64,000 nucleotides of DNA. It comes from Ignavibacteriae bacterium HGW-Ignavibacteriae-1. GTDB lineage: Bacteria; Bacteroidota; Ignavibacteria; Kapaibacteriales; UBA2268. Each line of letters opens with the position of its first letter. The stretch's first letter is position 1. Of the stretch, positions 1 through 20,863 are shown piece by piece. The position numbers and the translations under genes are program-made. The notes below the pieces were generated by a model. That model was not told the origin of the DNA. It searched no databases and saw nothing but the letters and a program-made list of their open reading frames with translations. The DNA lies in the NCBI GenBank assembly GCA_002839825.1, contig PGYU01000022.1:1-64000 (forward strand). Reading direction: 5' to 3'.

Positions 1-2878
1 CAAATTCGCTAACAACGGAATCCTTCAAGGAACCCACCAAAACTTGGAGCATATCAATATCTCTTGATGATGCAATTGGCTCTACGATGGAAAATACTGC
101 ATCAGACACATCAGACTGCAAAATAGTAGGCACAGAAAGTTTTATCACCCATACGTCACTCTGTCCATTATTCACTGATACATCACCGTCGTTGGAATTT
201 GAGTAACCGGCAACGATATATCCACCATCACTTGTCACTTTTAAAGAGCTTGCATAATCAGCATCACTTCCACCATAAGTCTTTTGCCATTTGATACTTC
301 CATCATTACCTAACATCATCACCCATACATCAAACCCACCTTTATTTTCTGTGATATCACCGTCCTTGGATTGAGTGTTTGCTAATACTATATAACTATT
401 ATCACTTGTCTCTTGGATGTAGCTGGCTGCATCAGTACGACTTCCCCCAAATGTCTTCTGCCATTCAATGTCTCCAACTATACTCAATTTCAACACCCAG
501 GAGTCCCAGCCACCCTTGTTCTCAATTACATCTCCTTCATCTGAATCAGAACTACCGGCGACTATATACCCACCATCACTCGTCTGTTGGATGAAATCTG
601 CTTGATCATAAGAATAGCCACCATATGATCTTTCCCATTCTATAATTCCATCAACGCTTAATTTCATTATCCATATATCATTATAGCCATTATTTTCTGT
701 TATATCACCATCATTTGAGTCAGTATAAGCTGCTAATATAAAACCACCGTCACTTGTCTCTTGGATATAAGTAGCTCTGTCACTAGCTCTCCCACCATAG
801 GTCTTCTGCCATTCGAGACTGCCATCACTTCTTAATTTCATTACCCATGAGTCCCATCCACCCTTGTTTTCTGTTACATCGCCGTCTTTTGAACGAGTAA
901 ATCCCGCAACAATATATCCACCTTCCCTCGTTTCTTGGATGGAATAAGCGTAATCCAAAGCAGTTCCACCAAAAGTTCGTTGCCATTCGATACTACCATC
1001 TATTCTTAATTTCAATATCCAAACGTCACTTTCACCCTTGTTTTCAGTTACATCGCCGTCATTTGAATAAGTATATGCTGCTACTATAAAACCTCCATCC
1101 CTTGTCTCCCGGATTGATTTTGCCTCATCTCGATCAAGCCCTCCAAAAGTCTTTTGCCATTTAATTTTTCCATTAATGTTTAATTTCAATATCCATATGT
1201 CCCAAGAACCTTTATTCTCTGTTACATCCCTGTCATTTGATTCCGTCCAACCTGCAACGATATAGCCACCATCGCTGGTCTCTTGAATAGAATTTGCTCT
1301 TTCTTCTTTACTTCCACCATAAGTCTTTTGCCATTCGATTTGAGGAGCAGGATTATCCGAATCCGGGTCTAATATTCCGTCGCCTTGGCTCACTCTTACC
1401 AAACATTGATTGCTTGTCGGTCGCGGAATATTGTTCCATTTGTAAATTAATTCGCTTGCAGTATTAGTAATGGTTTGCCATTTTTGACCATTATCTATGC
1501 TGTATTCTAAAAGCACTTTATCGTCAGCCGGAATACCGTCCCAAGTTATTACCGTATCACTGCCGACTGCAAAAGTTTCGCCACCGTTAGGATGTGTCAG
1601 ATTTAGGGTTTGCGTTGATGCATTTTTGTCTTTATACCCGCCTCTTGCGTAATATACCATAGGGCATGGCTCACTTTCAAACTCAAACCTGCTGAAGCTG
1701 TAACTGCTGTCAATTGGAGTGTAACTTACTGTTAGTTCCATACTTTCACCTTGATTCAATACAAAATTTGTAGGCGAAATCGTAAAGTCACCATTATTGC
1801 TCGTAATATTTGTTACAGTGAAATCAGCATTTAATGCTGTTACTGTCACTTTTTCTTCAACTTTCACACCTACAACAGGATAAGCAAATTTCACGGATGT
1901 AGGATTGAAATTTACTGTTCCTACAGATGCATTAGGACTTTGGTAGCTTCCAGTTGCTTTTGCACCCAAATCCTTATTTTGTAATTCAACATTAGTTATA
2001 CCTGTTATGCACGATATTCCGCTTTCCCATTCTATTTCACAAGGCGTTCCACCTTGGGCTAAATGTTGTATTGACATACCTATTTCTTGGGCAGCCGTTA
2101 AAGAAGTTACACCATCATATAAATAACCACCTGTAAAATCTGCCAGTTCTTTGAGGGATTTTTTTATACCATTAGGGCTTGCTTCGAGTCCTGAATATAT
2201 AACTGCAAAAAAAGTAATATTATACTGGGAACAAATATCTTTACATAACTTTAGCTCTTGTTCGGGCAATTCAGTCCACCAAGCATCGGTATATAATACT
2301 GCTACTCGCTTATTTAATCCGGTTTTCGCTATATTTAACAAACCAGTCAATCTATTTAATAAATGTTCAAAAAAATCATTACCTCCACGGGCTATTATTG
2401 GATCGATTGCTGATAAAATTTGGGATTTATATACTGTAAAATCTTGAATAATAAGTGCTTTGTGATCACAAGTTTGCAAAGCAAATTCTGATGGTGGCAT
2501 CGGAACTATACTGCATAATTCTTTTGCAGTTAATTTACCAAGTTCAAGAGGAATTTTACCATAATCACTAACAGACATAGAACCGGATACATCTAAACTC
2601 ATAGCGATGGAAACCGCTATAGGTTGCTTCGGCTGCGGACAACTAACAAATGTTACATTTCGTTCTACCCCATTTTCAGTAACTTCTAAATCGGATGGAG
2701 ATAGATTTATGAGCTTCCCTCCAGCATCTAAAGCATAAAATTTCGCTTTGATGGTCGGGAAATTTGAAATGTCAATGTCGAACAATGATAGGCTCTGCCC
2801 GCTTACATGATTTACGCAAAGCACTAAAAGCACGAGTGCTACAGCGAAAAAGCTTTGAATTTTGATGGGGTTTTTCAT
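1..2878 (-). CDS. Giant modular secreted protein, VWA plus 58-residue repeats (C-terminus cut by window edge)
   Basis: About 959 codons are visible; the gene runs off the left edge. It opens with a signal peptide (MKNPIKIQSFFAVAL..., ending near SGQ). A von Willebrand A-like domain follows at about residues 79-256, with a metal-site motif DVSGSM, a GGND loop and a weaker TDA third motif. Then come an abnormal-spindle/HYDIN-like Ig module (about 326-412), a Kre9/Knh1-like module with HPNGGETF (about 423-496), and seven copies of a 58-residue EWQKTYGG repeat (about 513-918). The visible end enters the same ILQSDVSDAVFSIVEP linker as its neighbours, so a T9SS sorting tail probably lies beyond the edge; this is inference. 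It is the last visible gene of a run beginning with the OmpA-family gene, 11 bp after its upstream paralogue. Likely a cell-surface or secreted binding protein; the ligand is unknown. Confidence 0.85.
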   Translation of the reverse strand, partial: MKNPIKIQSFFAVALVLLVLCVNHVSGQSLSLFDIDISNFPTIKAKFYALDAGGKLINLSPSDLEVTENGVERNVTFVSCPQPKQPIAVSIAMSLDVSGSMSVSDYGKIPLELGKLTAKELCSIVPMPPSEFALQTCDHKALIIQDFTVYKSQILSAIDPIIARGGNDFFEHLLNRLTGLLNIAKTGLNKRVAVLYTDAWWTELPEQELKLCKDICSQYNITFFAVIYSGLEASPNGIKKSLKELADFTGGYLYDGVTSLTAAQEIGMSIQHLAQGGTPCEIEWESGISCITGITNVELQNKDLGAKATGSYQSPNASVGTVNFNPTSVKFAYPVVGVKVEEKVTVTALNADFTVTNITSNNGDFTISPTNFVLNQGESMELTVSYTPIDSSYSFSRFEFESEPCPMVYYARGGYKDKNASTQTLNLTHPNGGETFAVGSDTVITWDGIPADDKVLLEYSIDNGQKWQTITNTASELIYKWNNIPRPTSNQCLVRVSQGDGILDPDSDNPAPQIEWQKTYGGSKEERANSIQETSDGGYIVAGWTESNDRDVTENKGSWDIWILKLNINGKIKWQKTFGGLDRDEAKSIRETRDGGFIVAAYTYSNDGDVTENKGESDVWILKLRIDGSIEWQRTFGGTALDYAYSIQETREGGYIVAGFTRSKDGDVTENKGGWDSWVMKLRSDGSLEWQKTYGGRASDRATYIQETSDGGFILAAYTDSNDGDITENNGYNDIWIMKLSVDGIIEWERSYGGYSYDQADFIQQTSDGGYIVAGSSDSDEGDVIENKGGWDSWVLKLSIVGDIEWQKTFGGSRTDAASYIQETSDNSYIVLANTQSKDGDITENKGGFDVWVMMLGNDGSIKWQKTYGGSDADYASSLKVTSDGGYIVAGYSNSNDGDVSVNNGQSDVWVIKLSVPTILQSDVSDAVFSIVEPIASSRDIDMLQVLVGSLKDSVVSEF
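122..1339 (-). repeat. Seven coding copies of a 174-bp (58-residue) repeat
   Basis: Seven in-frame copies encode units of the form IEWQKTYGG...SIQETSDGGYIVAG...SNDGDVTENKG..DVWILKL. W, the GG pair, the DGGYIVAG core and the ENKG...W end are nearly invariant, while residues between them vary. Seven copies fit a closed seven-bladed beta-propeller; that fold is inferred. Confidence 0.85.
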
Positions 2879-2889
2879 AAAGCACCAGT

Positions 2890-5505
2890 TTATCTCATTA
2901 TAATTAGATTTTTTGTAGTGATGTAAGTTGGTGTTATTAAAACTAAATAATATTGTCCCGAACTTAAATCCGAGATGTCGCATTTGAGGCTTTGGGCTCC
3001 AAGTGTGCCAATAGTCTGCTTGAATAGCTCTTTTACTTTTTCGCCTTGCATATTATAAATCAACAATTCCGTCTGTCCTTCCTCGTTTAATAGCAAATCC
3101 ACTTCGAGTAAGTTCTCTGCGGGGTTGGGGTTCACGCTTTCGATTCCGGCTTTGCTGTTTGCATTGAAGAGTCGTGTGCCACCTTCATAACAAATGCCGA
3201 GAAGTTTGAATGTGCCGTCTTCGTGGGAAATTGTGGTGTTGCCGCCAATTGCTTCGATGTTTGTCAATTCGAGTTTGCTGATTTCGGCATTCCCAAGACC
3301 CGCTCTGAACCATACAGTAGCAAGAGTATCACCGGTTTCAACATCAACAGGTAAATCTTCAATTTTGATTTTTGCATTACGGTCGTCTATGTAATCCATC
3401 GGGAAGTCAAGCGGATAGAGCATACTCGGGTTGAAATTGAGTTCTAAACTGAAACTTTCAGTGCGAGAAAATTTCAATAAGTAGCTGTCTGTGACAATAA
3501 TATAGACTTTCACGCCATCTGTGGCATATCCTTCAGCATCTAATACTTTGAGTGTTATAGCCGATGAATCAATTATCCCTTCGCCGATGATGCTTTGCTT
3601 CAGGGTATCTGATTGAGTTATGATTACGATTTCTGCTGTATGAAGACCGACTCTATTTGGCACGAATCGAAATTCACCGAAATAACTATCATTGGGCTCA
3701 ATTGTATATACGGGTAACCCTGCTACAAGTGAGAAAGCAGAAGCATCCGCACCTTGGATGTATAATGAATCCACTCTGAATTTCCAAGTCCCGACATTAC
3801 TCACAAATTCGTTTATAACGGAATCCTTCGTAGCGCCGACTAACACTTGGAGCATATCAATATCCTTTGATGAAGCAATTGGCTCTACGATGGAAAATGC
3901 TGCATCAGAAACATCTGATTGCAAAATTGAAGTTCCGGCGAGTTTTACCACCCATACGTCACTCTGTCCCTTATTCTCTGTAACATCACCGTCGTTGGAA
4001 TTTGAGAAACCGGCAACGATATAGCTACCATCACTCGTCTCTTGAATTGATCTTAATCCGTCAGATAATGTACCACCGTAAGTTTTTTGCCATTCAATAC
4101 TTCCATCAATTTCATATTTTATCACCAATGCGTCACTCATTCCCTTATTTTTTGTGACATCACCGTTGTTTGAGCCAGTTGAGCCTACAATAACATAGCC
4201 ACCATTGCTCGCCTCTTGAACGGAACGGAAACTATCAGATCCTGATCCACCAAAGGTATTTTGCCATTCAAGACTCCCATCAAAGCGTAATTTTAGCACC
4301 CATGCGTCCCAACTACCTTTATTATTAGTTATATCGCCATCGTTAGACTCTGCAAAACCCACAACAATATAGCCACCATCTTTGGTCTCATGAGCAGAAA
4401 ATGCAAATTCCAAAGAACTTCCTCCAAAAGACATTTGCCATTCGATGTTCCCATCAGTACTTAATTTTAAAATCCATACGTCATGTTCACCCTTATTCTT
4501 TGATACATCTCCATCATTTGATCTTGACTGACCAGCAACAATATATCCGCCATCTCGAGTCTTTTCGATTGAATTTGCATAGTCTGTTTCGCTTCCTCCA
4601 AATGTCTTTTGCCATTCAATATTTCCATCAATACTTAGTTTCACAACCCATACGTCACCTAAACCTTTACTATCTGTTACATCACCGTCTTCTGAACTCG
4701 CATTACCAGCTACGATATAACCACCATCACTTGTCTCTTGAATGGATTGTGCAAAATCTAAATGTCTGCCACCAAAAGTCTTTTGCCATTCAAGACTCCC
4801 ATCAAAAGTTAATTTCAATATCCATACATCGTAATCGTAATAGCCTTTATTCTCAGTTACATCGCCATCATTAGACCTTGTCCAACCTGCAACTATATAA
4901 CCACTATCTTTCGTTTCTTTAATTGAATACGCAAAATCCTCATTACTTCCACCGTAGGTCTTTTGCCATTCAATAATTCCATCAATCGTTAATTTAAATA
5001 TCCAGACGTCGTAATCGCCTTTATTCTCAGTTACATCGCCATCATTAGACCGAGACTCACCAACAACGATATAACCACCATCACTCGTTTCTTGAATAGA
5101 GTACGCTCTATCATCTTTACTACCACCATAGGTCTTTTGCCATTCGATTTGAGGTGCAGGATTATTTGGGTCTATTTGGTTGACTCTTATTAAACATCGA
5201 TTGCTTGTTGGTTTGGGGATATTCTTCCAAATGTAAGTTAATCCGCTTGCGTTATTAGTTATAGTTTGCCATTTTTGACCATTATCTGTGCTGTATTCCA
5301 AATGCACCCTGTCTGAAGGCAGAACACCTTCCCAAGTTATAACTGTATCGCTACCGACTACGAAAGTTTCGCCACCGTTCGGGTGTGTCAGTTTTAGAGT
5401 CTGGCTTTGGAGAGTCAAGCTCTGTCCGCTTACATGATTTACGAACAGCACTAAAAATAGTAGCGCTACAGCGAAAAGGCTTTGTTTATTAAGGGTGTTT
5501 TTCAT
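2890..5505 (-). CDS. T9SS-exported repeat protein without VWA, with cohesin-like module
   Basis: 871 residues. Signal peptide at 1-27, then directly the Kre9/Knh1-like module (HPNGGETFVVGSDTVITW, about 35-108), seven 58-residue EWQKTYGG repeats (about 116-523), an Ig-like linker module (about 535-645), a cohesin-like stretch (about 650-772), and a C-terminal type A sorting domain starting at NPNPAENLLEV and ending NLIIMR. Compared with its neighbours it lacks both the VWA domain and the L-type lectin. The last about 70 residues are almost identical to those of the 1494-residue paralogue. Only 13 bp separate it from the gene upstream and 11 bp from the one downstream, so it is cotranscribed. 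Expected to be exported through the outer membrane by T9SS and attached to the surface or released. The cohesin-like call is by pattern only. Confidence 0.88.
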   Translation of the reverse strand: MKNTLNKQSLFAVALLFLVLFVNHVSGQSLTLQSQTLKLTHPNGGETFVVGSDTVITWEGVLPSDRVHLEYSTDNGQKWQTITNNASGLTYIWKNIPKPTSNRCLIRVNQIDPNNPAPQIEWQKTYGGSKDDRAYSIQETSDGGYIVVGESRSNDGDVTENKGDYDVWIFKLTIDGIIEWQKTYGGSNEDFAYSIKETKDSGYIVAGWTRSNDGDVTENKGYYDYDVWILKLTFDGSLEWQKTFGGRHLDFAQSIQETSDGGYIVAGNASSEDGDVTDSKGLGDVWVVKLSIDGNIEWQKTFGGSETDYANSIEKTRDGGYIVAGQSRSNDGDVSKNKGEHDVWILKLSTDGNIEWQMSFGGSSLEFAFSAHETKDGGYIVVGFAESNDGDITNNKGSWDAWVLKLRFDGSLEWQNTFGGSGSDSFRSVQEASNGGYVIVGSTGSNNGDVTKNKGMSDALVIKYEIDGSIEWQKTYGGTLSDGLRSIQETSDGSYIVAGFSNSNDGDVTENKGQSDVWVVKLAGTSILQSDVSDAAFSIVEPIASSKDIDMLQVLVGATKDSVINEFVSNVGTWKFRVDSLYIQGADASAFSLVAGLPVYTIEPNDSYFGEFRFVPNRVGLHTAEIVIITQSDTLKQSIIGEGIIDSSAITLKVLDAEGYATDGVKVYIIVTDSYLLKFSRTESFSLELNFNPSMLYPLDFPMDYIDDRNAKIKIEDLPVDVETGDTLATVWFRAGLGNAEISKLELTNIEAIGGNTTISHEDGTFKLLGICYEGGTRLFNANSKAGIESVNPNPAENLLEVDLLLNEEGQTELLIYNMQGEKVKELFKQTIGTLGAQSLKCDISDLSSGQYYLVLITPTYITTKNLIIMR
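3935..5158 (-). repeat. Seven coding copies of the 58-residue repeat
   Basis: Seven in-frame units of about 174 bp. The second has a two-residue insertion (YYDYDVW). The sixth is the most diverged (VIKYEIDG end). The copy number matches the partial paralogue at 122-1339. Confidence 0.85.
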
Positions 5506-5518
5506 AAATCACCTTTTT

Positions 5519-8500
5519 TTATCTCATTATAATCAAATTTTTTGTAGTGATGTAAGTTGGTGTAATCAATACTAAATAATAATGACCCGAGCTTAAGTCA
5601 GAAATGTCGCATTTGAGGCTTTGGGCTCCAAGTGTGCCAATAGTCTGCTTAAACAGTTCTTTTACTTTTTCGCCTTGCATATTGTAGATCAGTAGCTCTG
5701 TCTGTCCTTCCTCGTTTAATTGCAAATCTATTTCGAGCATATTTTCCGAGGGGTTGGGAGAGATTCTGACTATTCCTTGATTTGATTTTGGTGTATTATA
5801 GACACTAAGTGGGGAATTTTTGCATGGAACAATCCAATCATTAATATTATGCACCTGAAAAGCGCGACCGGTGGCAGATGTAAATCCAACATAGCCAAAT
5901 TCACCATCCTCGAGACTCAAATATTCCGGTAAATCTATGTCATCCAAAGTAAGTACTGGTTCGGTGAACATGCGTTCATTATTTAAATAAATGTTCAATC
6001 TTTTTAATGCATAATTATAAGCTATACGAACATAATAAACTGAGTCTTGTTCCAAAAGCATGATATTTTTGTTCATTGCAAGTGTTGATTCCTTGATGCT
6101 GTGGTCGGCTGTGTTAGGCTCTGGTCCTAAAGATTGGATTGCAATATGATTTCCGTTCGGGTCATACGGGTTGCGGAATAAATCAATTTCAATCGCCAAG
6201 CTGTTACGAAATCCTGTGTATCCGATATCATCGCCTTGTTCGCCGAGTGAAGGGTTGAATTCATTTAATATTACAAATGCTAAGCCACCCGCGCCGGGCA
6301 GTGATGTTTCTTCCATACCGCCATTGTCGCCGTCAGTATAGTTAAATTTAAACTCTGTGAAAAAATCCTTTTTGAAAGATAATTTTTCTTTCATCCACAC
6401 GGCGCCTAAGTTAAATTCGAAGGCTTCGGTCAATTCGATGTGTAAATCATCTCGTTTTGTATTGCCCAAGAAAACCAAATTTTCATCGTTTGGAGTGACG
6501 ATATTTTCATTGACAAGGACATCGAAATGAGTTGTATCAGTCATCGTACCTTCGATTTCGACATACAAGCTATAGCGTCCGGAATGGTGCAGTTGCGCAT
6601 TTGGGATTATGATATATTGTTGATCGGATGTGAAACCGTTTGGTCCCATCCAGTGATACTGCCCCTTATGAACTTCGTTTGTAAATAAGTAAAGCAGGTC
6701 GCCGACGCACAATGGACTGAAAGAGAGGATTTTTGGTTCAAGCTGCCCATTGCCGAATAGCTGTACTATAGCTGGACTGCCTACTCCATCGTAATGGAAC
6801 TCTAAAGTACCACTCGTTCTGCCGAGCGACGAGGGCGCAAATCTGAGGTCCATCAAATGAGTTTCACCGGGCTGCAAAGTGAATGAACCTTCACCGTTTA
6901 TGGTAGAGAAATCTACGATATTCGGATAATTATGCTTCGTTGAAGTAATTGTTATAGGGCTATTGCTGACATTTTTAATTGTTTGAATTCTTAAGGAATC
7001 TTTGTGTGATTGGTAAGGAACATCCCCAAAATCAATCAAATTGTTGATTTTTTGGAGATGTGGCTCAACAATGTAGAAAACTGCATCGGAGATATCAGAT
7101 TGCAAAACAGTCGCCCCAACTGCAAGTTTTATCACCCAAAAATCTTCCAGACCCTTATTCTCCGTAACATCACCGTCATTTGATTTTGTATAACCTGCTA
7201 CGATGTAACCTTTATCACTCGTCTCTTGGATATTTCGTGAATCATCATTATTACTTCCTCCATAAGTTTGTTGCCATTCGAGACTTCCATCAGATTGTAC
7301 TTTTATTATCCATAAATCACCTTTACCCTTGTTTTCTGTGACATCACTGTCTAAAGATTCTGTATAACCTGCAACAATATAATCACCATCATCAGTCTCT
7401 TGGATGAAATATGCACGCTCATGAAGACTCCCACCATACGTCTTTTGCCATTCAAGACTTCCATCAAGCTTTAATTTCATTATACAGATGTCACTATTAC
7501 CCTTATTTTCAGATAGATCACCGTCATTTGACCAAGTATAACCTACCATGATATAACCACCATTTCTTAATTCTTGGATGTAAGTTGAGAAATCATTATT
7601 ACTACCTCCATAAGTCTTTTGCCATTCGATATTTCCACTATTACTAAGTTTCAATACCCACATGTCATTTTGACCTTTGTTTTCTGTAACATCACCGTCC
7701 TTTGAAATAGTATTAGCTGAAATCACATAACCACCATCAATGGTTTGTTGAATTGAAAATGCTACGTCACGGCCACTTCCTCCATAAGTCTTTTGCCATT
7801 CTATATTTCCATTACTACTTAGTTTCAGTACCCATATGTCTTCAACACCTTTATTCTGGGCTATATCACCGTCATCTGAGTCTGTATAACCTGCAACGAT
7901 ATAACCACCGTCACTCGTCTCTTTTACGCTATGTACATAATCACTTTCACTTCCGCCATACGTCTTTTGCCATTCTATGTTTCCATCAATGCTTAATTTA
8001 AAAACCCAAATGTCAAACAAACCTTTATTCTCAGTTATATCTCCGTCGTTAGAGAAAGTATCTCCTGAAACGATATATCCACCATCTCGTGTCTCTTGGA
8101 TAGATTTTGCATCATCTCCTGAACTTCCTCCATATTTTTTTTGCCATTCGATATCTCCATCTCTATTTAATTTAAAAATCCATATGTTTCCATTTCCTTT
8201 AGTATCTGTTAAATCGCCATCAATTGACCAAGTAGTACCCGCTACTATATAACCATCATCCCTAGTCTGTTGAATGTAATTTGTAAAATCACCTTCACTT
8301 CCCCCATAAGTCTTTTGCCATTCAATACTTCCATCAAAGCGCAACTTTAATATCCATATGTCGTGATCACCTTTATTTTCATTAATATCACCATCATTGG
8401 ACAATGTAGAACTCGCTACTATAAAACCATTATCTCTCGTCTCTTGAATGAAATACGCTCCTTCGACATCACTACCTCCAAATGTCTTTTGCCATTCGAT

Positions 8501-10003
8501 TTGAGGCGCGGGATTATCAGGGTCTGAATCGTTAGTCACCCCACCTTGACTAACCCTGACCAAACACTGATTACTTGAAGGTTTGGGAACATTGGTCCAA
8601 TTGTAAGTTAATCCACTTGCATTTTTTGTTATTATTTGCCAATTTTGTCCATTATCATTACTATATTCCAAATGTACTTTATCTGAAGGCAGAATTCCCT
8701 CCCACGTAATAACCGTGTCGCTGCCAACTACGAAAGTTTCACCACCATTCGGGTGTGTCAATTTTAACGTCTGAACAGTTGGCTTTTTTCCTTTATAACC
8801 ACCACTTGCATAATATGTCATTGTGCATGGTTCGCTTTCGATTTCAAACTTGCAGTTGTTGTAGCCACTATCTGTCGGGGTATAACTTACGGTTAATTCC
8901 CTGCTTTCCTCTTCATAAAGTACAAAATTTGATGGTGATATAGTAAATGCGGCATTGCTCCCGATAATACTCGTTACATTGAAATTAGCATTTCTCGCCG
9001 TTATGGTTACTTTTTTCTCTACTTTAACTCCAATTTCAGGATTTAGAAATTTCACCGTTGGCGGATTAAATTCTAATTTTGCAACTGTTTCTATGGGACT
9101 TTTATAGCTTGTTATAGCTTTTAATCCCAAATCTAATATTTGTAATTCTACATTTGTCAATCCTGCTTTACATGAAATTCCACTTTCCCATACTATTTCA
9201 CAAGGGTCCCCATTTTGTGCTACTTGATAAATCATATGAAGTGCATTCTTTGCTTTTTCTAAATCATGATAAGGGATATTATTAATTGAAAAACCTCCTG
9301 TTTTAAATGACATTTCCTTGCACAGATCCGATGTATAATCATAATTGTCAAATATTACAAAATTTAATGTGACTCTTGATTGATTTGCTTTTTGTATTAT
9401 CATTGAAATTGAATTTTTATCAAAATGGCTGCAACTGCTTAACAACAAAACTACTTTCTTATATTTGCCTTTTTCTGCAACTGAAATACCACCTGTTAGA
9501 GGTCTAATCATAGCTCCAGTATGATCTTCCGAACTACTAAGTGTTTGTAAATTATTTATTGCAGATTCTAATCGATTCCTATCTGTTGTGAAATCTTGGT
9601 TAATATAACTATTACCATCAAAGCTAACTAAAGCGACTTCATTAGTTCCAATTTCTAACATATCAATCCAAGAAAGTAACACATTTTTGGCATTTTTTAA
9701 GTTATTATAAATTGTCACATCTACGAGTAGCACAACTGAAAGTCTCTCCGGATTTTGCATAGGACAATTCAAATTCGTAATTTCTCTATTAATTCCGTTT
9801 TCAGATACTATCAGTTCATTTTGTGTAGGTCGTATCAGATTTATGTCTTTATCAAATGCAATAAACTTCGCTTTGATTGTGGGGAAATTGGATATGTCAA
9901 GGTCGAACAATGACAGACTTTGTCCGCTTGCTTGATTTACGCAAAGCACTAAAAGCAGTAGTGCCACGGCGAAAAGGCTTTGTTTAATGATGGGGGTTTT
10001 CAT
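5519..10003 (-). CDS. Giant T9SS-exported protein: degenerate VWA, eight repeats, L-type lectin
   Basis: 1494 residues. Order: signal peptide (1-28); a VWA-like domain (about 89-254) whose metal site is lost (DVTIY where the paralogues have DVSGS, no GGTD, no TDG); HYDIN-like Ig module (about 308-401); Kre9-like module (about 411-481); eight 58-residue EWQKTYGG repeats (about 501-965); a second HYDIN-like module (about 981-1091); an Ig-like segment; an L-type (legume-like) lectin domain (about 1171-1391) with AIEIDLFRNPYDPNGNHIAI; and the type A sorting tail (about 1414-1494). The start has an AAAAAGG-type ribosome site inside the 13-bp gap after the upstream stop. The lectin suggests carbohydrate binding at the cell surface. 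The VWA fold may persist structurally without metal. Confidence 0.9.
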   Translation of the reverse strand: MKTPIIKQSLFAVALLLLVLCVNQASGQSLSLFDLDISNFPTIKAKFIAFDKDINLIRPTQNELIVSENGINREITNLNCPMQNPERLSVVLLVDVTIYNNLKNAKNVLLSWIDMLEIGTNEVALVSFDGNSYINQDFTTDRNRLESAINNLQTLSSSEDHTGAMIRPLTGGISVAEKGKYKKVVLLLSSCSHFDKNSISMIIQKANQSRVTLNFVIFDNYDYTSDLCKEMSFKTGGFSINNIPYHDLEKAKNALHMIYQVAQNGDPCEIVWESGISCKAGLTNVELQILDLGLKAITSYKSPIETVAKLEFNPPTVKFLNPEIGVKVEKKVTITARNANFNVTSIIGSNAAFTISPSNFVLYEEESRELTVSYTPTDSGYNNCKFEIESEPCTMTYYASGGYKGKKPTVQTLKLTHPNGGETFVVGSDTVITWEGILPSDKVHLEYSNDNGQNWQIITKNASGLTYNWTNVPKPSSNQCLVRVSQGGVTNDSDPDNPAPQIEWQKTFGGSDVEGAYFIQETRDNGFIVASSTLSNDGDINENKGDHDIWILKLRFDGSIEWQKTYGGSEGDFTNYIQQTRDDGYIVAGTTWSIDGDLTDTKGNGNIWIFKLNRDGDIEWQKKYGGSSGDDAKSIQETRDGGYIVSGDTFSNDGDITENKGLFDIWVFKLSIDGNIEWQKTYGGSESDYVHSVKETSDGGYIVAGYTDSDDGDIAQNKGVEDIWVLKLSSNGNIEWQKTYGGSGRDVAFSIQQTIDGGYVISANTISKDGDVTENKGQNDMWVLKLSNSGNIEWQKTYGGSNNDFSTYIQELRNGGYIMVGYTWSNDGDLSENKGNSDICIMKLKLDGSLEWQKTYGGSLHERAYFIQETDDGDYIVAGYTESLDSDVTENKGKGDLWIIKVQSDGSLEWQQTYGGSNNDDSRNIQETSDKGYIVAGYTKSNDGDVTENKGLEDFWVIKLAVGATVLQSDISDAVFYIVEPHLQKINNLIDFGDVPYQSHKDSLRIQTIKNVSNSPITITSTKHNYPNIVDFSTINGEGSFTLQPGETHLMDLRFAPSSLGRTSGTLEFHYDGVGSPAIVQLFGNGQLEPKILSFSPLCVGDLLYLFTNEVHKGQYHWMGPNGFTSDQQYIIIPNAQLHHSGRYSLYVEIEGTMTDTTHFDVLVNENIVTPNDENLVFLGNTKRDDLHIELTEAFEFNLGAVWMKEKLSFKKDFFTEFKFNYTDGDNGGMEETSLPGAGGLAFVILNEFNPSLGEQGDDIGYTGFRNSLAIEIDLFRNPYDPNGNHIAIQSLGPEPNTADHSIKESTLAMNKNIMLLEQDSVYYVRIAYNYALKRLNIYLNNERMFTEPVLTLDDIDLPEYLSLEDGEFGYVGFTSATGRAFQVHNINDWIVPCKNSPLSVYNTPKSNQGIVRISPNPSENMLEIDLQLNEEGQTELLIYNMQGEKVKELFKQTIGTLGAQSLKCDISDLSSGHYYLVLITPTYITTKNLIIMR
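7109..8500 (-). repeat. Eight coding copies of the 58-residue repeat
   Basis: Eight in-frame units of 174 bp, one more than in the two downstream paralogues. The EWQKTYGGS core is highly conserved across all eight. The extra unit fits either an eight-bladed propeller or gain of one unit by recombination. Confidence 0.85.
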
Positions 10004-10016
10004 AAAGTACCTTTTT

Positions 10017-13000
10017 TTATCTCATTATAATTAGATTTTTTGTAGTGATGTAAGTTGGTGTAATCAAAACTAAATAATACTGTCCTGAGCTTAATTCTGA
10101 GATGTCGCTATTTAAATTCTTGGCTCCAAGCGAGCTTATTGATTGTTTTAAAAGCTCTTTTACTTTTTCGCCTTGCATATTATAAATCAACAATTCCGTC
10201 TGTCCTACTTCGTTTAATTGCAAATCCACTTCGAGAATGTTATTTGCCGGGTTGGGTGAAATTCTGACTATTCCTTGATTTGATTTTGGTGTATCATAGA
10301 CACTAAGTGGGGAATTTTTGCATGGAACAATCCAATCATAAATATTATGCACCTGAAAAGCGCGTCCGGTGGCAGATGTAAACCCAACATAGCCAAATTC
10401 ACCATCCTCGAGACTCAAATATTCAGGTAAATCTATGTCATTCAAAGTAAGTACAGGTTCGGTGAACATGCGTTCATTATTTAAATAAATGTTCAATCTT
10501 CTTAATGCATAATTATAAGCTATACGAACATAATAAACTGAATCTTGTTCCAAAAGCATGATATTTTTGTTCATCGCAAGAGTTGATTCCTTGATGCTGT
10601 GGTCGGCTGTGTTAGGCTCTGGTCCTAAGGATTGGATTGCAATGTGATTTCCGTTCGGGTCATATGGGTTACGGAATAAATCAATTTCAATCGCCATACT
10701 ATTCTTAAAGCCGGTGTAGCCAATATCACCGCCTTTTTCGCCGAGTGCCGGGTTGAATTCATTTTGGATTACAAACGCCAAGCCGTCGGCTCCGGGCAAT
10801 GAAGTTTCCTCCATATTACCATTGTCACCGAGTGTATAGTTGAATTTAAACTCTGTGAAAAAATCTTTTTTGAACGAGAATTTTTCTTTCATCCACACTG
10901 CGCCTGAGTTAAACACGGTAGCTTCGGTCAATTCGATGTGCAAATCATCTCGCTTGGTATTGCCCAAGAAAACCAAATTCTCATCATTGGGAGTAACGAT
11001 ATTTTCATTTACAAGGACGTCGAAATGCGTTGTATCGGTCATCGCTCCTTCGATTTCGATATACAAGCTGTATCGTCCGGAGTGGTGCAGTTGCGCATTT
11101 GGGATAACGATGTACTGCTGATCGGAAGTGAAACCATTTGGTCCCATCCAGTGATACTGCCCTTTATGAACTTCGTTTGTGAACAAATAGAGCAAATCGC
11201 CGACGCATAAAGGACTGAAAGATACAATTTTTGGTTCAAGCTGTCCATTACCGAAAAGCTGCACTATTGCGGGACTGCCGACTCCATCATAATGAAACTC
11301 CAGAGTGCCGCTCGTTCTGCCAAGCGACGAGGGCGCAAATCTTAGGTCCATCAAATGCGTTTCACCGGGTTGCAAAGTGAATGAACCGCCACCATTTATG
11401 GTAGAGAAATCTACGATATTCGGGTAATTATGCTTAGTAGAGGTTATTGTGATTGGGCTGCTACTGACATTTTTAATTGTTTGAGCACTAATTGAATCTT
11501 TTTGTGATTGGTAAGGAACTGTCCCAAAATCAATCAAATTATTGATTATTTGGAGATGCGGCTCTACACCCTCGCCAATGATGCTTTGCTTCAAAGTATC
11601 AGATTGAGTTATGATTACTATTTCTGCGGTGTGAAGACCCACTCTATTAGGCACGAAACTAAATTCAGCGAAGTGGCTTTTGTTCGACTCTATCGTATAT
11701 TCAGGAAATCCCGATACAAGCGAGAAAGCAGAAGCATCCGCGCCTTGGATATAAATCGAATCCACTCTAAATTTCCAAGTGCCTATATTCATAATGAAAT
11801 CACTAACAACAGAATCCTTTGTAGTGCCGAGCAAAACTTGGAGCATATCAATGTCTCTCGATAAAGCAATGGGCTCAACAATTGAAAAAACTGCATCGGA
11901 GACATCGGATTGTGGAAATTCATCATTACTTTCTAATCTCCAGACTCTTGCTTTTTTGTCTGAACCAGCTGTTAATATTCTCTTACTATCAGGACTCCAG
12001 GAAGAATAATTCCATGGTATTTCTTGATTACTAAATAATTCAATTAGTTTCTTACCAGAATTGGCATCCCAAACTATTGCATGATTTCCTGAAGTAACAA
12101 AATATTTATTATCCGGACTCCAAGCACCATCGAATACATGCGAATTATGCCCTTCTAAGGTATATAGCAATTGTGAATTATTAACATCCCAAACATAAGC
12201 TTGTAAATATCCAAGCCCTAATATTTGACTTCCATCATTATTCCAGACAGCCTTATTAAAATGAATATTAGTATCAGGAAGCTCTTTATAAACTCCACCT
12301 CCAATCGAATTATGAATACTTATTTTATTGTATCTACTTGTAGAATAAAATTTTGTTGTAGAAAGAAATTTTGTTCCATCTGGGCTCCAGTCCGCATATT
12401 TAATTACATAAGTGGCACTAGGATAATCAGACCACCCAATTAAAAGTGTACCATCAACAGCACTGTAAACACCACCTTTTCCAATATAAGAAGAAACTAA
12501 AATTTTAGTACCATCATTATTCCAAAAAGCGAAATCGAAATCCAAATAATTTTTGAAATGCACTAATTCTTTTCCTGTAAAAGGGTCCCAAATAATTACC
12601 CTAGTAATTTGACTTACAATACGGGCACCATCTGGACTCCACTTTAGGAATGTCCCTGTATTATAAATCTCAGATAATTTTTCCCCATTTTCAACATTCC
12701 AAATAGTAGCATTGCCGGGACTTCCATACCTATCTTCAGTTATTGTTGCTACTAACTTTCCATCAGGGCTCCAAGCTCCATTAATTATTTTATTATACGT
12801 ATATTTTAAAGTAAGTAAAGGTAATCCATTCCAACTATCCCAAATGATGGCAGAAAAATCATCACTTACAGTTAATATCATATCGCCGTTGGGACTCCAT
12901 ATTGCATTGTTCACCCGTTCAGAATGTTCAAGAGAAAATTCTAAATATTTTGATTCATTTGAATCATTTTTTACTCCACCTTGACTAACTCGTACCAAAC

Positions 13001-14438
13001 ATTGGTTGCTTGCAGGTTTGGGGATATTCGTCCAGTTGTAAGCCAATCCGCTTGCATTTTTTGTTATTGTTTGCCAATTTTGCCCGTAATTTGTGCTGTA
13101 TTCCAAATGAACTTTTTCATCAGGTAGAACCCCTTCCCAAGTTATCAAAGTGTCATTACCGACTACGAAAGTTTCGCCACCATTCGGGTGAGTCAGTTTT
13201 AGGGTCTGTATTTTTGGCTTTATTCCTCTATAACCTCCAACTGCATAATATTGCATAGTACATGGAGCACTTTCAATCTCAAACTTGCAGAAATTGTAAC
13301 TGCTGTCTGATGGAGTATAACTTATAGTTAATTCCCTGCTTTCACCCTTATTCAAAATAAAATTTGTTGGTGTAATTGTAAATGCCGTATTGTTGCCAGT
13401 AATATTACTTACTGTAAAATCTGCATTTCTTGCAGTTACTCTTACTTTTTCTTCTACTTTAATGCCAATTACCGGATTAAGAAATTTCACTGTTAAGGGG
13501 TCAAATTCTAAGTTTGCAACTGATGCAATGGGACTTTGGTAGCTTGTTTTAACTTTTAACCCCAAATCTGATATTTTTAATTCTGCATCTGTAATACCCT
13601 CAATGCAGGGTGCTCCACTTTCCCATTCAATTTCACAGGGTTCACCACCTTGGGCTTCTTGAAGGATTTTTCTATAAACTTCAACTGCTTCATCTATTGT
13701 CGTAACATTTTCGAACCATTGCCCACCAGTTTGAGTTGTAATATCTTTGATGTTCTGCGGACAAAGCATATTGAGAGTTACTCCATAAATTACAACATCT
13801 TGAGATAAAGCCTCTTGAATTATCTTGCTTGTTTGAGGTTCACGATTAGGTTTTCCATCTGTTATAAATACAATAACTCTTTTAAACTTTGCGTTTTGTG
13901 TGACTAACAAACCCCCAGCCAGTGGATTGATTAACGCCACATCATAATCAGTTCCTCCTTTTGCATTTAGATTGTCTATCCCATCGAGCAATTTACTGAT
14001 ATCCGATGTAAAATCCTGGATTATATAATTCAAATGGTCAAATGCCGTAATTGCACATTCGGATTTCCCGAGTGGGAGACCTTCTACCCAAGCTCTGCTT
14101 GCGGCTTTGGCATTCGCTATTCCTCTACCACTCATAGAGCCACTGACATCTATCGTCAGAACACTTGATATTGCAATAGGTGGTGCAGGCGTTGGACAAG
14201 AAACATTTGTAACAGTCCTTTTAAGTCCATTCTCCATCAATTCAAAATCCGATGGGGAGAGGTTTAAAATCTGCTTCCCATCGGCATCGAAGGCATAAAA
14301 TTTCGCTTTGATAGTCGGGAAATTGGAAATGTCAAGGTCGAATAATGACAGACTTTGTCCGCTTGATTGATTAACGCACAGCGCTAAAAATAGTAGCGCT
14401 ACGGCGAAAAAGCTTTGAATTTTGATGGGGGTTTTCAT
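10017..14438 (-). CDS. Giant T9SS-exported protein: intact VWA, WD40 propeller, L-type lectin
   Basis: 1473 residues. Order: signal peptide (1-28); VWA domain (about 88-253) with all three metal-site motifs intact (DVSGSMSG, GGTDYD, ITDGKPN); HYDIN-like module; Kre9-like module (about 405-490); an eight-blade WD40 propeller (about 496-836) with WSPDGK...IIWD signatures; two HYDIN-like modules (about 854-1067); Ig-like segment; L-type lectin (about 1149-1371); type A sorting tail (about 1392-1473). Everything outside the propeller aligns with the 1494-residue neighbour, which has EWQKTYGG repeats in the same slot. The ribosome site AGGAGAAATAAA precedes the start. It follows the OmpA-family gene by 55 bp. 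WD40 repeats in an exported bacterial protein suggest a protein-binding platform; the partner is unknown. Confidence 0.9.
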   Translation of the reverse strand: MKTPIKIQSFFAVALLFLALCVNQSSGQSLSLFDLDISNFPTIKAKFYAFDADGKQILNLSPSDFELMENGLKRTVTNVSCPTPAPPIAISSVLTIDVSGSMSGRGIANAKAASRAWVEGLPLGKSECAITAFDHLNYIIQDFTSDISKLLDGIDNLNAKGGTDYDVALINPLAGGLLVTQNAKFKRVIVFITDGKPNREPQTSKIIQEALSQDVVIYGVTLNMLCPQNIKDITTQTGGQWFENVTTIDEAVEVYRKILQEAQGGEPCEIEWESGAPCIEGITDAELKISDLGLKVKTSYQSPIASVANLEFDPLTVKFLNPVIGIKVEEKVRVTARNADFTVSNITGNNTAFTITPTNFILNKGESRELTISYTPSDSSYNFCKFEIESAPCTMQYYAVGGYRGIKPKIQTLKLTHPNGGETFVVGNDTLITWEGVLPDEKVHLEYSTNYGQNWQTITKNASGLAYNWTNIPKPASNQCLVRVSQGGVKNDSNESKYLEFSLEHSERVNNAIWSPNGDMILTVSDDFSAIIWDSWNGLPLLTLKYTYNKIINGAWSPDGKLVATITEDRYGSPGNATIWNVENGEKLSEIYNTGTFLKWSPDGARIVSQITRVIIWDPFTGKELVHFKNYLDFDFAFWNNDGTKILVSSYIGKGGVYSAVDGTLLIGWSDYPSATYVIKYADWSPDGTKFLSTTKFYSTSRYNKISIHNSIGGGVYKELPDTNIHFNKAVWNNDGSQILGLGYLQAYVWDVNNSQLLYTLEGHNSHVFDGAWSPDNKYFVTSGNHAIVWDANSGKKLIELFSNQEIPWNYSSWSPDSKRILTAGSDKKARVWRLESNDEFPQSDVSDAVFSIVEPIALSRDIDMLQVLLGTTKDSVVSDFIMNIGTWKFRVDSIYIQGADASAFSLVSGFPEYTIESNKSHFAEFSFVPNRVGLHTAEIVIITQSDTLKQSIIGEGVEPHLQIINNLIDFGTVPYQSQKDSISAQTIKNVSSSPITITSTKHNYPNIVDFSTINGGGSFTLQPGETHLMDLRFAPSSLGRTSGTLEFHYDGVGSPAIVQLFGNGQLEPKIVSFSPLCVGDLLYLFTNEVHKGQYHWMGPNGFTSDQQYIVIPNAQLHHSGRYSLYIEIEGAMTDTTHFDVLVNENIVTPNDENLVFLGNTKRDDLHIELTEATVFNSGAVWMKEKFSFKKDFFTEFKFNYTLGDNGNMEETSLPGADGLAFVIQNEFNPALGEKGGDIGYTGFKNSMAIEIDLFRNPYDPNGNHIAIQSLGPEPNTADHSIKESTLAMNKNIMLLEQDSVYYVRIAYNYALRRLNIYLNNERMFTEPVLTLNDIDLPEYLSLEDGEFGYVGFTSATGRAFQVHNIYDWIVPCKNSPLSVYDTPKSNQGIVRISPNPANNILEVDLQLNEVGQTELLIYNMQGEKVKELLKQSISSLGAKNLNSDISELSSGQYYLVLITPTYITTKNLIIMR
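11930..12950 (-). repeat. Coding array of eight WD40 units
   Basis: Eight units of about 42 residues with the signature W(S/N)(P/N)DG...WD. It sits exactly where the sister genes carry EWQKTYGG repeats. Units 4 and 6 use WNNDG instead of WSPDG. Confidence 0.85.
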
Positions 14439-14493
14439 TTTATTTCTCCTAATAACAGATGGATAGTATTACGCCGAGCATCCGTCAGATTGA

Positions 14494-16650
14494 TTATTTC
14501 ACTTTTGTTTTCACTATTATGTTTACGGTTCTGCAATAGAAACGACCTTCGGGTAATTCATTGTTATATAGTAATTCATCGCTACCGAAGCCCACTACTT
14601 TGGCATCGGGGCGTTGCAGTGCAGTTCTTGTCGCTTCGGCACGTCGCTCGGAAAGCTTTTTGTTGTGGTCGGCGATTCCGGTTCTGTCCGTATAACCCAA
14701 AATTTCTAATTCCGATTCTTTTTTCAGCCTGCTTCGGATGAATTCGATAATCGTTTTGTCATTATCAGCAATGGCGTGTTTGTCAAAATCGAACAAAATT
14801 AAGCTGAATTGCTCGATTTCATAATCGCCGATTTGTTCGGTGCGTTTGTGCTGAACGGTGATTACTTCGATTTCTTTCGTTTGATTGTCTATTGACTTGA
14901 CGTTACCGTTGTTATCAACCAAATTTAGCGAATATATTAGCGGTTGCGGTGATTTGGGGATGAGCTTTTGGAACTGAGCCAATTCCCAATCAACGCTTTC
15001 AACCAAATTCCTATCACCGGATTTTGTGAAAATACTCTCATCGTCACTATTTTGATATGCTTTCAATTCCCAGGATTTCAAACCGGCATCAGATTGTCCA
15101 TTTAGTTTGAATCTGACAATCGGCGGATTGGAGGAACGGTCAATTTTTTCGATGAAAATTGGTTCCAAAATTCTGAAATCGTCACTATAAATTTCTACTC
15201 TGCGGTTTTCTGCGGTTTTATCTGCTTCTGTCTTGGGTGTAGATGCTTTGTCGGGTAGATTTTTAGCCTCAACTTTGAATCGTTCGGGGTTTATATTCCA
15301 CACATTTACAAGATAATCTCTGACTGTTTCAGCACGCTTTCGAGAAAGTTCAAGTTTTTTGCTTTCTGAACCATAATCAGAATTGCAACCGATTAATACC
15401 ACATTTGCAGCCGGATACATATTCAATCTTTCGCCAACAATATTAAGTATATTATGATAAATTTGAAGTGTAGAATCTCTGAAAAGGTCTGTCAAATCGA
15501 ATTGTCTGGCGGCATCTTTGCTGATTGATTTGTAGCGAGCAGGCAAAGTATGTGAATTATCCTCAAAGAAAACATAGTTGAGCAGCGGGTCGAGCCTGTT
15601 TGAAATAAATTCCTCAATTCTGAAAATCGGATTGGGAATTTCATTTCCGGCATTATCAACGCCAACGGCTTCAATCGAACCATCTAATGCATATGATTTG
15701 GGTATCATGAGCGTATCAACTCGTGATGTGATTTCTGTATGGATGATTTCAACATCCGTTTCACCTGTGTGATTTTCAAGATTTTCGATACCACGTTTGT
15801 AAGTTACGGCAGTAATCATATCGGATTCGATCCTGACAGAATCAATTTTAAATTCTTTTTTGAAGATTTCCGTTTTGACGGGTTTCGGGAGTGGCACGTA
15901 TTTTATCGCCACTGATAATCTCAGGCTATTAACTGTCCAATCAGTTTCCTTGACCATATTGGATAGCCCGAAATAATAAAATAGCTCGGGAACTATTCGC
16001 ATGGTGTTGTCCGAATTTAATGGCATTTCGTAACTTATCCCCGGAAACAAAGCCAACTGAAAAGTATTTGCATCAGGCAAATCACCTTCAAATTCGTTGC
16101 GAGTTCGCTTTCTGGTGTCGTTACCGGCTTCATCCATAAATGTACCCACACCTTCAGGCTGAACAATTGTTTCAACTTGCTTGAAAGTATAAGTGAGATT
16201 TTGCCCCGCTCTCATACCTAAGCTGATATTGAATCTTGGTGAGAGGGAATAAATGAGTGCCGGCTCGAGACCAACGTTCATGAAACCACTTTCTACGGTG
16301 TGCTCAAACACACCGTCTAAGGGACCGGTTGGGGTTATGACAGTAGTTCCCTCCTCTGCTGACAGAGTACCGCTCAGGGTATGCAGTCCCAATCTCACAC
16401 CCAAGCTGAATTTTTTGCCGAGTCGATGTTCGTAAAGCACACCAAAGTTGTATCCAAGCCCTGAGCCTGATTCAAACCGTGGGCAACAATTGGGGATGCC
16501 GGGTAAATTGGTGAATTGGGCTGAATGAAAATTTAGGTTGATTCCACCATATACTCCGTACTTGGATGTCGCGGTATCGTTTGCAGAGAAGGCACTTATG
16601 CTTAACAATTGAAATGCAATCATTATCTGCGAGAATTTCATAAAGGTCAT
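14494..16650 (-). CDS. Outer-membrane beta-barrel protein with two OmpA-type domains
   Basis: 718 residues from the first ATG; an ATG three codons in (16641) gives a cleaner signal peptide (MKFSQIMIAFQLLSISAFS). The N-terminal about 250 residues alternate in the manner of an outer-membrane porin-like barrel. Two OmpA-like peptidoglycan-binding regions follow. The first (about 380-490) has LSRKRAETVRDYL and ENRRVEI; the second, C-terminal one (about 610-715) has FDFDKHAI, GYTDRTG and LSERRAEA. Typical OmpA proteins have one such domain. It is the first gene of the run, 55 bp before the first giant secreted protein, so it may anchor or stabilise the envelope for those proteins; that link is inferred from gene order only. 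Confidence 0.85.
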   Translation of the reverse strand: MTFMKFSQIMIAFQLLSISAFSANDTATSKYGVYGGINLNFHSAQFTNLPGIPNCCPRFESGSGLGYNFGVLYEHRLGKKFSLGVRLGLHTLSGTLSAEEGTTVITPTGPLDGVFEHTVESGFMNVGLEPALIYSLSPRFNISLGMRAGQNLTYTFKQVETIVQPEGVGTFMDEAGNDTRKRTRNEFEGDLPDANTFQLALFPGISYEMPLNSDNTMRIVPELFYYFGLSNMVKETDWTVNSLRLSVAIKYVPLPKPVKTEIFKKEFKIDSVRIESDMITAVTYKRGIENLENHTGETDVEIIHTEITSRVDTLMIPKSYALDGSIEAVGVDNAGNEIPNPIFRIEEFISNRLDPLLNYVFFEDNSHTLPARYKSISKDAARQFDLTDLFRDSTLQIYHNILNIVGERLNMYPAANVVLIGCNSDYGSESKKLELSRKRAETVRDYLVNVWNINPERFKVEAKNLPDKASTPKTEADKTAENRRVEIYSDDFRILEPIFIEKIDRSSNPPIVRFKLNGQSDAGLKSWELKAYQNSDDESIFTKSGDRNLVESVDWELAQFQKLIPKSPQPLIYSLNLVDNNGNVKSIDNQTKEIEVITVQHKRTEQIGDYEIEQFSLILFDFDKHAIADNDKTIIEFIRSRLKKESELEILGYTDRTGIADHNKKLSERRAEATRTALQRPDAKVVGFGSDELLYNNELPEGRFYCRTVNIIVKTKVK

Positions 16651-19127: not shown

Positions 19128-19174
19128 ATCGTTTCGTCATTTGTTGCAACTGACGAGACAAAATAATTTTAATT

Positions 19175-19206
19175 AAGCAAGGGATATATATTCCTTGCTT
19201 TTTTTT
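19175..19206 (+). terminator. Rho-independent terminator
   Basis: An 8-bp stem AAGCAAGG/CCTTGCTT (19175-19182 with 19193-19200) is followed by a run of T. It lies 48 bp after the T9SS protein stop. Confidence 0.8.
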
Positions 19207-19218
19207 ATTTATTTCTAT

Positions 19219-19347
19219 CTGAACTATGATTTATATGATTAAGATTATTATGTTGTCTGAACTATGATTTTTATGATTTTTGTTATTAACGTGATTATGT
19301 TATCTGAACTATGATTTTTGTGATTAACGTGATTAACGTGATTAAAG
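19219..19347. repeat. Three copies of the dispersed CTGAACTATGATTT element
   Basis: Copies start at 19219, 19257 and 19304. Each begins CTGAACTATGATTT and continues with a variable chain of ATGATT/GTGATTAA units. More copies lie at 20637-20705 and 21938-22028. Non-coding. The rest of the 19128-19632 gap holds a terminator and scraps of other dispersed elements (TGGACAGAGCGCTGTTC at about 19383; CGTTTCGTCA motifs). Confidence 0.8.
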
Positions 19348-19632
19348 AAATATAAATATTCAAACCCTCCATGTACAACATTGTGGACAGAGCGCTGTTC
19401 TATCCCTACAAAGTATAATCTTAATATCGTTCCGTCATTTCCCGTTTCGTCAGTTTAAAAAAAGACGAGACTCAAATAATACAAAGGATACAAAATCGTT
19501 TCTATTTTAATAAATAATTCGTTTTTTGTTGTTCGTTTGTTAAAATTTTATTTTAACTAAATTCGTATGGGATTATGTTTTTAAGTTTTGATTTTTTGAA
19601 GTAAATTGATTTAAAAAAGTGTCGGAAAAGAT

Positions 19633-20631: not shown

Positions 20632-20636
20632 CTTTT

Positions 20637-20705
20637 CTGAACTGATTTATATGATTAAGCTGTCTGAACTATGATTTATATGATTAATGTGATTAACGTG
20701 ATTTT
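20637..20705. repeat. Two copies of the dispersed CTGAACTATGATTT element
   Basis: Copies begin at 20637 (shortened, CTGAACTGATTT) and 20664. They share the ATGATTAA/GTGATTAACGTGATT chain with the copies at 19219-19347 and 21938-22028. Confidence 0.8.
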
Positions 20706-20718
20706 GATAGATTGAATT

Positions 20719-20791: not shown

Positions 20792-20805
20792 GATGTAAAA
20801 AATAA

Positions 20806-20838: not shown

Positions 20839-20863
20839 AAAAAATAATAAATATTTATTTAAT

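What the first reader, a model, noticed from the sequence alone, without database searches (positions are those of the whole stretch)
1..16650. Operon of tandem giant surface proteins with a swappable central propeller
Four paralogues follow an OmpA-family gene with gaps of 11-55 bp. Two of them (5519-10003 and 10017-14438) align end to end, including signal peptide, VWA region, Ig modules, lectin and sorting tail, yet one has eight 58-residue repeats and the other an eight-blade WD40 in the same slot. A third drops VWA and lectin and gains a cohesin-like module. This looks like a combinatorial cassette system diversifying the binding head of T9SS surface proteins behind a shared frame. I know of no named system with this layout.
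Basis: partly seen in the sequence, partly recalled or inferred. Interest (0 to 1): 0.72.

Follow-up and report, generated by a model that had tools for sequence, protein, structure and literature searches.

The report
Recombining array of modular surface proteins
A little-known group of uncultured bacteria carries side-by-side genes for large surface proteins that share the same secretion and scaffold parts but carry exchangeable central heads, and comparison of three related species shows that these parts have been reshuffled between genes over evolutionary time.

Summary
Behind an OmpA-family gene, four paralogous T9SS-type proteins follow with gaps of 55, 13, 13 and 11 bp. Genes 5519-10003 and 10017-14438 share frame segments, but one head is an eight-bladed propeller of 58-residue repeats (AlphaFold pLDDT 91) and the other a WD40. 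Seams drop from about 25/30 to chance identity within 30-60 nt.

The genome belongs to the Kapabacteria group. The frame occurs in 125 of 149 genomes searched. Among 106 members the slot holds WD40, 58-aa propeller, SBBP, FISUMP or FGE-type heads, needing about 19-25 head changes on frame trees. Between conserved flanking genes, three species of the genus carry 1, 3 and at least 4 genes. Synonymous divergence jumps between modules there, whereas a solitary paralogue is near uniform. So modules recombine among paralogues, on an evolutionary time scale.

No programmed switch was found: no reverse transcriptase in the genome, no recombinase in the flank scanned, no long identical repeats. Unexpected: with FISUMP and most FGE heads the frame is often split into two secreted proteins exactly at the head seam. 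Binding function is inferred.

The parts
14494..16650 (-). OmpA-family outer membrane protein (OMP_b-brl_2 barrel plus two OmpA-like stretches), first gene of the array
   Evidence: orthologues at the same place in G002 (92%) and G001 (86%)
10017..14438 (-). Array gene A: SP-VWA-Ig/ASH-KNH-like - WD40 head - ASH1-ASH2 - Ig+L-type lectin - T9SS tail (1473 aa)
11913..12959 (-). WD40 head of gene A (eight W[SN]PD-like motifs); no close homologue in 148 other genomes; lower GC (33%) than the adjoining frame
10257..11250 (-). Ig + L-type lectin block of gene A; occupies the place of the cohesin-like module of the positional counterpart in G002
5519..10003 (-). Array gene B: SP-VWA(no DxSxS)-Ig-KNH-like - 8 x 58-aa propeller head - one ASH - Ig+lectin - T9SS tail (1494 aa)
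7109..8500 (-). Eight 58-residue repeats of gene B, predicted eight-bladed beta-propeller, nearest solved fold CylK
2890..5505 (-). Array gene C: SP fused directly to KNH-like module - 7 x 58-aa propeller - ASH1 - cohesin-like - T9SS tail (871 aa); VWA and first Ig absent
3130..3577 (-). Cohesin-like module of gene C; with the tail 85% nt identical to the positional G002 gene
1..2878 (-). Array gene D: SP-VWA-Ig-KNH-like - at least 7 x 58-aa propeller - ASH1..., truncated by the contig start (likely start at 2878, inside the longer ORF 2-2983)
17064..19127 (+). Conserved flank gene (687 aa, T9SS tail), syntenic in G002 and G001

Best explanation
This is an array of T9SS-type modular surface proteins of the Kapabacteria group. 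Each chain is built as signal peptide + VWA + Ig/ASH + KNH-like module, then a head, then ASH Ig modules, then a cohesin-like or lectin module, then a T9SS sorting tail. Genes of the array duplicate in tandem, and their modules are exchanged or overwritten between paralogues, most likely by ordinary homologous recombination or gene conversion in the conserved frame segments. Over species time this gives the same frame with different heads (WD40, 58-aa propeller, FISUMP, FGE), different terminal modules and different copy numbers at one syntenic locus. Shown: anatomy, sharp seams, different content in sister species, segment-wise dS, repeated head changes on the frame tree. Inferred: export to the surface, a binding (adhesin-like) role for propeller and lectin, homologous recombination as the agent, and any partner or anchoring role of the OmpA protein.
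For: Same locus, three species of one genus: 687-aa gene and OmpA on one side; a response-regulator-like ORF on the other side in G001 and G002; content 1 gene (G001), 3 ORFs (G002), at least 4 (window). Gene A vs the G002 gene in the same position: 1-1460 76%, heads unrelated, 2527-3188 73%, lectin vs cohesin unrelated, tail 82%. dS by segment: neighbours OmpA 0.39 and flank gene 0.45 between the species; solitary WD40 paralogue 0.38-0.47 (tail 0.17); array blocks at 0.42-0.53 (lectin block A/B, cohesin block C/G002, ASH-cohesin block G002 a1/a3) beside segments at 0.9 to saturation in the same genes. Seams fall to chance within 30-60 nt. 106 members: 67 WD40, 11 58-aa, 6 SBBP, 9 FISUMP, 9 FGE, 4 unclassified; 23-25 head changes on the N-frame tree and 19-21 on an Ig-KNH-only tree, minimum 5. 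T9SS translocon SprA/Sov present.
Against: Only one genome per species, so no exchange between strains is seen. dS estimates (Nei-Gojobori, Jukes-Cantor) are near saturation in several segments and short segments have wide, overlapping intervals. Head assignment rests on HMMs built from few seeds; deep parts of the trees are weakly supported and the trees were quick searches. Nothing shows surface location or binding. Longest identical runs (24-54 nt) are short for efficient homologous exchange today.
Confidence: 0.82

Rival explanations
1. A programmed head-switching system (site-specific recombinase, gene-conversion cassettes or a diversity-generating retroelement) that varies the head within a population.
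For: Tandem array with shared segments on both sides of the variable head; FISUMP and FGE heads in relatives, FGE being a fold that DGRs target (PMC4159848, PMC4891356); 95-96% identical 344-bp gene ends in G061.
Against: No RVT_1 match in the window's genome or in G002; the RT on the G017 array contig reads as group II intron type by inspection and no short TR/VR pair was found there; no recombinase among eight flanking proteins; longest exact shared run between array gene pairs 54 nt; exchanged blocks are already diverged (dS about 0.4-0.5).
Confidence: 0.07
2. Plain tandem duplication followed by divergence, with heads and VWA evolving so fast that similarity was lost in place, without module exchange.
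For: VWA diverges strongly at amino-acid level (25-39% between the window's array genes); the 58-aa repeats and WD40 are both propellers.
Against: Heads are different families; synonymous divergence, not only amino-acid divergence, differs between segments of one gene pair; a solitary paralogue in the same genomes is near uniform; lectin and cohesin occupy the same slot.
Confidence: 0.06
3. Assembly chimera: repeats from several loci were joined wrongly in a draft assembly.
For: The window starts at a contig end inside an array gene.
Against: Paralogues are at most 88% identical over blocks and share exact runs of 54 nt or less; the same frame/head logic and seams recur in independent assemblies.
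Confidence: 0.04

Closest known systems
T9SS surface adhesins of Flavobacterium johnsoniae (SprB, RemA) with cognate PorP/SprF shuttles
   Same: Surface-targeted T9SS cargo; a membrane-protein gene next to the cargo gene is common for type B substrates (PMC12618676, PMC5445135)
   Different: Here the tail is the Por_Secre_tail family (type A model in NCBIfam) and the neighbour is an OmpA/OMP_b-brl_2 protein, not a PorP/SprF shuttle; heads are exchanged on a common frame in a tandem array
Porphyromonas gingivalis Mfa5 (PG0182) and PG0183
   Same: VWA protein among T9SS effectors; PG0183 carries a VWA region identical to that of its neighbour (PMC5445135), a small precedent for a shared module in adjacent genes
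   Different: No shared frame with exchangeable propeller or C-lectin-type heads described there
Rhs / polymorphic toxin loci
   Same: Conserved delivery frame with an exchangeable functional part and recombination-driven turnover (general knowledge, not tested)
   Different: The exchangeable part here is central and non-toxin (propeller, lectin-type folds), followed by a common C-terminal frame
Diversity-generating retroelement targets
   Same: FGE-type domain at the C-terminus of some members (as in DGR targets, PMC4159848, PMC4891356)
   Different: Variation here is whole-module exchange; no reverse transcriptase in the window's genome
Cellulosome scaffoldins
   Same: Weak sequence match of the terminal module to cohesins
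   Different: No Dockerin_1 match in the window's genome; one cohesin-like module per chain

Membership tests
Type IX secretion system cargo (type A tail) | C-terminal Por_Secre_tail / TIGR04183 sorting domain | tested here: met
   Genes A, B, C over both curated cut-offs; gene D is cut before its tail
Type IX secretion system cargo (type A tail) | Genome encodes the SprA/Sov translocon | tested here: met
   TIGR04189 at 947 bits in G000
Type IX secretion system cargo (type A tail) | Sec signal peptide | tested here: inconclusive
   Hydrophobic N-termini are visible; no signal-peptide predictor available
SprB/RemA-type adhesins with SprF shuttle | Cognate PorP/SprF-family gene next to the cargo gene | tested here: not met
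   The neighbour is OMP_b-brl_2 + OmpA; no PorP/SprF match among the array or flank proteins scanned. The far side of the array lies beyond the contig
Diversity-generating retroelement system | DGR reverse transcriptase | tested here: not met
   No RVT_1 match in G000 or G002
Diversity-generating retroelement system | Template repeat / variable repeat pair with A-biased mismatches | tested here: inconclusive
Programmed antigenic or phase variation cassette system | Dedicated recombinase at the locus | tested here: inconclusive
   None among eight flanking proteins 17064-30920; the other flank lies beyond the contig end
Programmed antigenic or phase variation cassette system | Near-identical exchange arms | tested here: not met
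   Longest exact shared run 24-54 nt between array gene pairs
Cellulosome-like cohesin/dockerin assembly | Cohesin domain | tested here: inconclusive
   Profile hits are cohesin/scaffoldin entries but weak; 11 of 19 homologues match Pfam Cohesin, the window's own module does not
Cellulosome-like cohesin/dockerin assembly | Dockerin-bearing partners in the genome | tested here: not met
   No Dockerin_1 at E <= 0.01 in G000; one to three matches in each of seven relatives searched
CylK-like / SBBP beta-propeller (58-aa repeat head) | Ring of four-stranded blades | tested here: met
   32 strands in 8 repeats, pLDDT 91, pTM 0.86; CylK E 1.3e-30 by sequence, 2.9e-20 by fold

The most novel reading that the evidence does not exclude
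The frame is a plug-in display platform that exists in a one-chain and a two-chain form. Propeller heads are built into the chain, while C-lectin-type heads (FISUMP, FGE) end a separate secreted protein without a T9SS tail and are displayed through a partner that carries the C-terminal frame and tail. Heads are still being exchanged within populations, so the array acts as a recognition-diversity locus of Kapabacteria.
Probability: 0.15. Interest if true: 0.75.

Novelty: new variant of a known kind. Interest (0 to 1): 0.52.

Why it matters
Module exchange in bacterial surface proteins is usually inferred from scattered domain combinations. Here one syntenic locus in three sister species, with a solitary paralogue as an internal control, shows which modules move and where the seams are. 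It gives an uncultured group of bacteria a testable family of candidate surface-recognition proteins, and the regular split at the head seam offers a direct test of whether T9SS can display a tail-less partner.

Tried and rejected
DGR hypothesis, raised because FISUMP and FGE heads appeared: rejected for this genome by the absence of any RT and doubtful for the G017 contig because its RT reads as a group II intron type and no short TR/VR pair was found. Structure prediction of the cohesin-like module from a single sequence failed (pLDDT 32) and was not used; a first narrow profile (A3) found nothing in the PDB, a wider one did. Donor of the gene A WD40 head: no hit at E <= 1e-35 outside the window's own genome, donor unknown. 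Completing gene D: the response-regulator-like ORF that closes the locus in G001 and G002 was found in G000 only as a 38% paralogue elsewhere, and the contig ends inspected gave no evident continuation. Papers: no description of this layout found in the held library, which is not proof of absence. The fast-divergence and assembly-chimera readings were weighed against dS, exact-run and cross-assembly evidence.

Full report
What is there. The window is the first 64 kb of contig C36 of a 3.23-Mb, 43-contig draft genome. The nearest named records that carry the frame are mostly Candidatus Kapabacteria / Ignavibacteria MAGs, so the organism is placed in the Kapabacteria group; its formal name was not given. 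On the - strand, an OmpA-family gene (14494-16650) is followed by genes A (10017-14438), B (5519-10003), C (2890-5505) and D (from 2878, cut at base 1), with gaps of 55, 13, 13 and 11 bp. Genes A, B and C end in a Por_Secre_tail above Pfam and NCBIfam cut-offs. The genome encodes the SprA/Sov translocon and at least 150 such tails were scored in it.

Anatomy. Frame order: signal peptide, VWA, Ig/ASH, a KNH-like module (LTHPNGGE...; the KNH name is from general knowledge, not a Pfam hit), head, ASH1, ASH2, terminal module (Ig + L-type lectin, or cohesin-like), tail. Gene A carries a WD40 with eight W[SN]PD-like motifs. Gene B carries eight 58-residue repeats; genes C and D show seven. AlphaFold2 on an alignment of ten heads gives 32 strands in eight blades (pLDDT 91.1, pTM 0.86); the nearest solved relatives are CylK propellers by sequence (E 1.3e-30) and by fold (E 2.9e-20). 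So both heads are beta-propellers of different families. The lectin matches L-type lectins (Pfam E 5e-26; PDB E 5.7e-12). The cohesin-like module is weakly but consistently cohesin.

Seams. Nucleotide comparison of A and B: 1-153 86%, VWA without nt match, 777-1479 77%, heads none, then 2871-4422 (A) with 2934-4485 (B) 88%. In 30-nt steps identity falls from about 25/30 to the chance level of about 8/30 within one or two steps at each seam. Gene B also lacks ASH1; the junction lies at a short shared motif (GTTGAGCC / GTAGAGCC). The VWA of gene B has lost its DxSxS metal site. Gene C goes from the signal peptide straight to the KNH-like module.

Same locus in sister species. The 687-aa flank gene and OmpA are conserved in G002 (89%, 92%) and G001 (OmpA 86%); on the far side both have a 380-aa response-regulator-like ORF (named by inspection). 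Between these, G001 has one gene (VWA / 58-aa x7 / cohesin-like), G002 has VWA / 58-aa x7 / cohesin-like, VWA / FISUMP, and a C-frame-only ORF, and the window has at least four genes. Gene A and the G002 gene in the same position match in 1-1460 (76%), 2527-3188 (73%) and the tail (82%), but not in the head and not in the terminal module. The cohesin block of that G002 gene is instead 85% identical to gene C.

Timing. Between the window's species and G002, dS is 0.39 for OmpA, 0.45 for the flank gene, and 0.38-0.47 along the solitary WD40 paralogue P0009 (0.17 in its tail). Array genes are not uniform: the ASH2-lectin block of A and B has dS 0.48 (0.38-0.62), while their Ig-KNH is 0.91 (0.69-1.25) and tail 1.05 (0.58 to saturation); the cohesin block of C and G002 is 0.53 (0.37-0.74), while its neighbours are about 1 or more; the ASH-cohesin block of G002 genes a1 and a3 is 0.42 with tails of only 36% aa identity. 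A single duplication with later divergence does not predict such steps; block exchange does. Some intervals are wide and overlap, and several segments are near saturation.

Order-wide family. The N-frame profile matches 125 of 149 genomes, the window's own included. Of 106 distinct members, 67 have WD40-like heads, 11 58-aa propellers, 6 SBBP propellers, 9 FISUMP, 9 FGE, 4 unclassified. The head label needs 23-25 changes on the N-frame tree and 19-21 on a tree from Ig-KNH alone, where 5 would suffice for single origins; starred branches alone force at least 11 changes of the WD40 label on the former tree and 5 on the latter. Labels are also clustered (no shuffle as low), so exchange is repeated but not rampant. 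One large part of the tree is mostly WD40; the other, with the window's genes, is mixed.

Split frame. In eight loci a FISUMP- or FGE-headed gene ends with its head and is followed closely (overlapping to 105 bp, counted stop to stop-free frame) by a second ORF that starts with its own hydrophobic leader and then the ASH1 motif (QSDxSDAVWSIV-like); the complete ones go on to a cohesin-like module. A ninth case (G017 C93) has a C-frame ORF about 790 bp behind the last of three FISUMP genes. The propeller-headed genes are fused in one chain; two FGE proteins of another family are fused too. The seam used for head exchange is thus also the seam of gene splitting. The function of the split is unknown; a non-covalent display partner is a guess.

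Mechanism. Best supported is recombination among paralogues in the shared frame segments. Against a programmed system: no RT in the genome, no recombinase in the flank scanned, longest exact run 54 nt, diverged exchanged blocks. Surface display and binding follow from T9SS tail, VWA, lectin and propeller types by established knowledge, not from any test here. The OmpA protein recurs next to frame genes in several genomes (positions, e.g. G017 C17, G061 C69, G061 C63, G064 C69) and could be an anchor or export partner; this is inference by analogy with T9SS substrate/shuttle gene pairs (PMC12618676).

Verdict. It is a well-documented case of modular surface-protein shuffling in an uncultured group, with a frame that has no name I know of and a curious split form, rather than a new switching system.

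Noticed in passing
L029:11953-15514; L101:9930-13532; L106:2310-6823; L080:5442-9133; L189:2112-5967; L197:728-4550; L204:1052-4800; L051:1-2949: Frame split into two secreted ORFs exactly at the head/ASH1 seam, seen only with FISUMP or FGE heads.
   Followed up: partly
L053:505-2958: A member with a head of about 255 aa that matches no Pfam family, in the same slot between KNH-like and ASH1 modules.
   Followed up: no
L106:6506-6846, 10837-11180, 14382-14725: Three 95-96% identical 344-bp stretches at the ends of neighbouring array genes in G061, suggesting recent gene conversion of tails.
   Followed up: no
L033:2499-8005 (own genome, contig C4, about 47.5-53.0 kb): A second OmpA-paralogue plus T9SS protein pair with SBBP repeats, two ASH modules and a cohesin-like module.
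   Followed up: partly
window 5519-10003, residues 85-112: VWA domain of gene B has lost the DxSxS metal-binding motif; 9 of 106 members lack the motif in the stretch scanned.
   Followed up: partly
L085 / G001 C33: Contig JAGXRP010000033.1 is labelled Desulfobulbaceae but has the length of contig C33 of a genome placed in the window's genus; the public label looks wrong.
   Followed up: no
L169:56-1303: Reverse transcriptase that reads as group II intron type on the same contig as an OmpA + FISUMP array in G017.
   Followed up: partly
window 19225-19345 and 41576-41765: Short tandem repeats (47-bp unit, 2.6 copies; 68-bp unit, 2.3 copies at 96%) outside the array.
   Followed up: no
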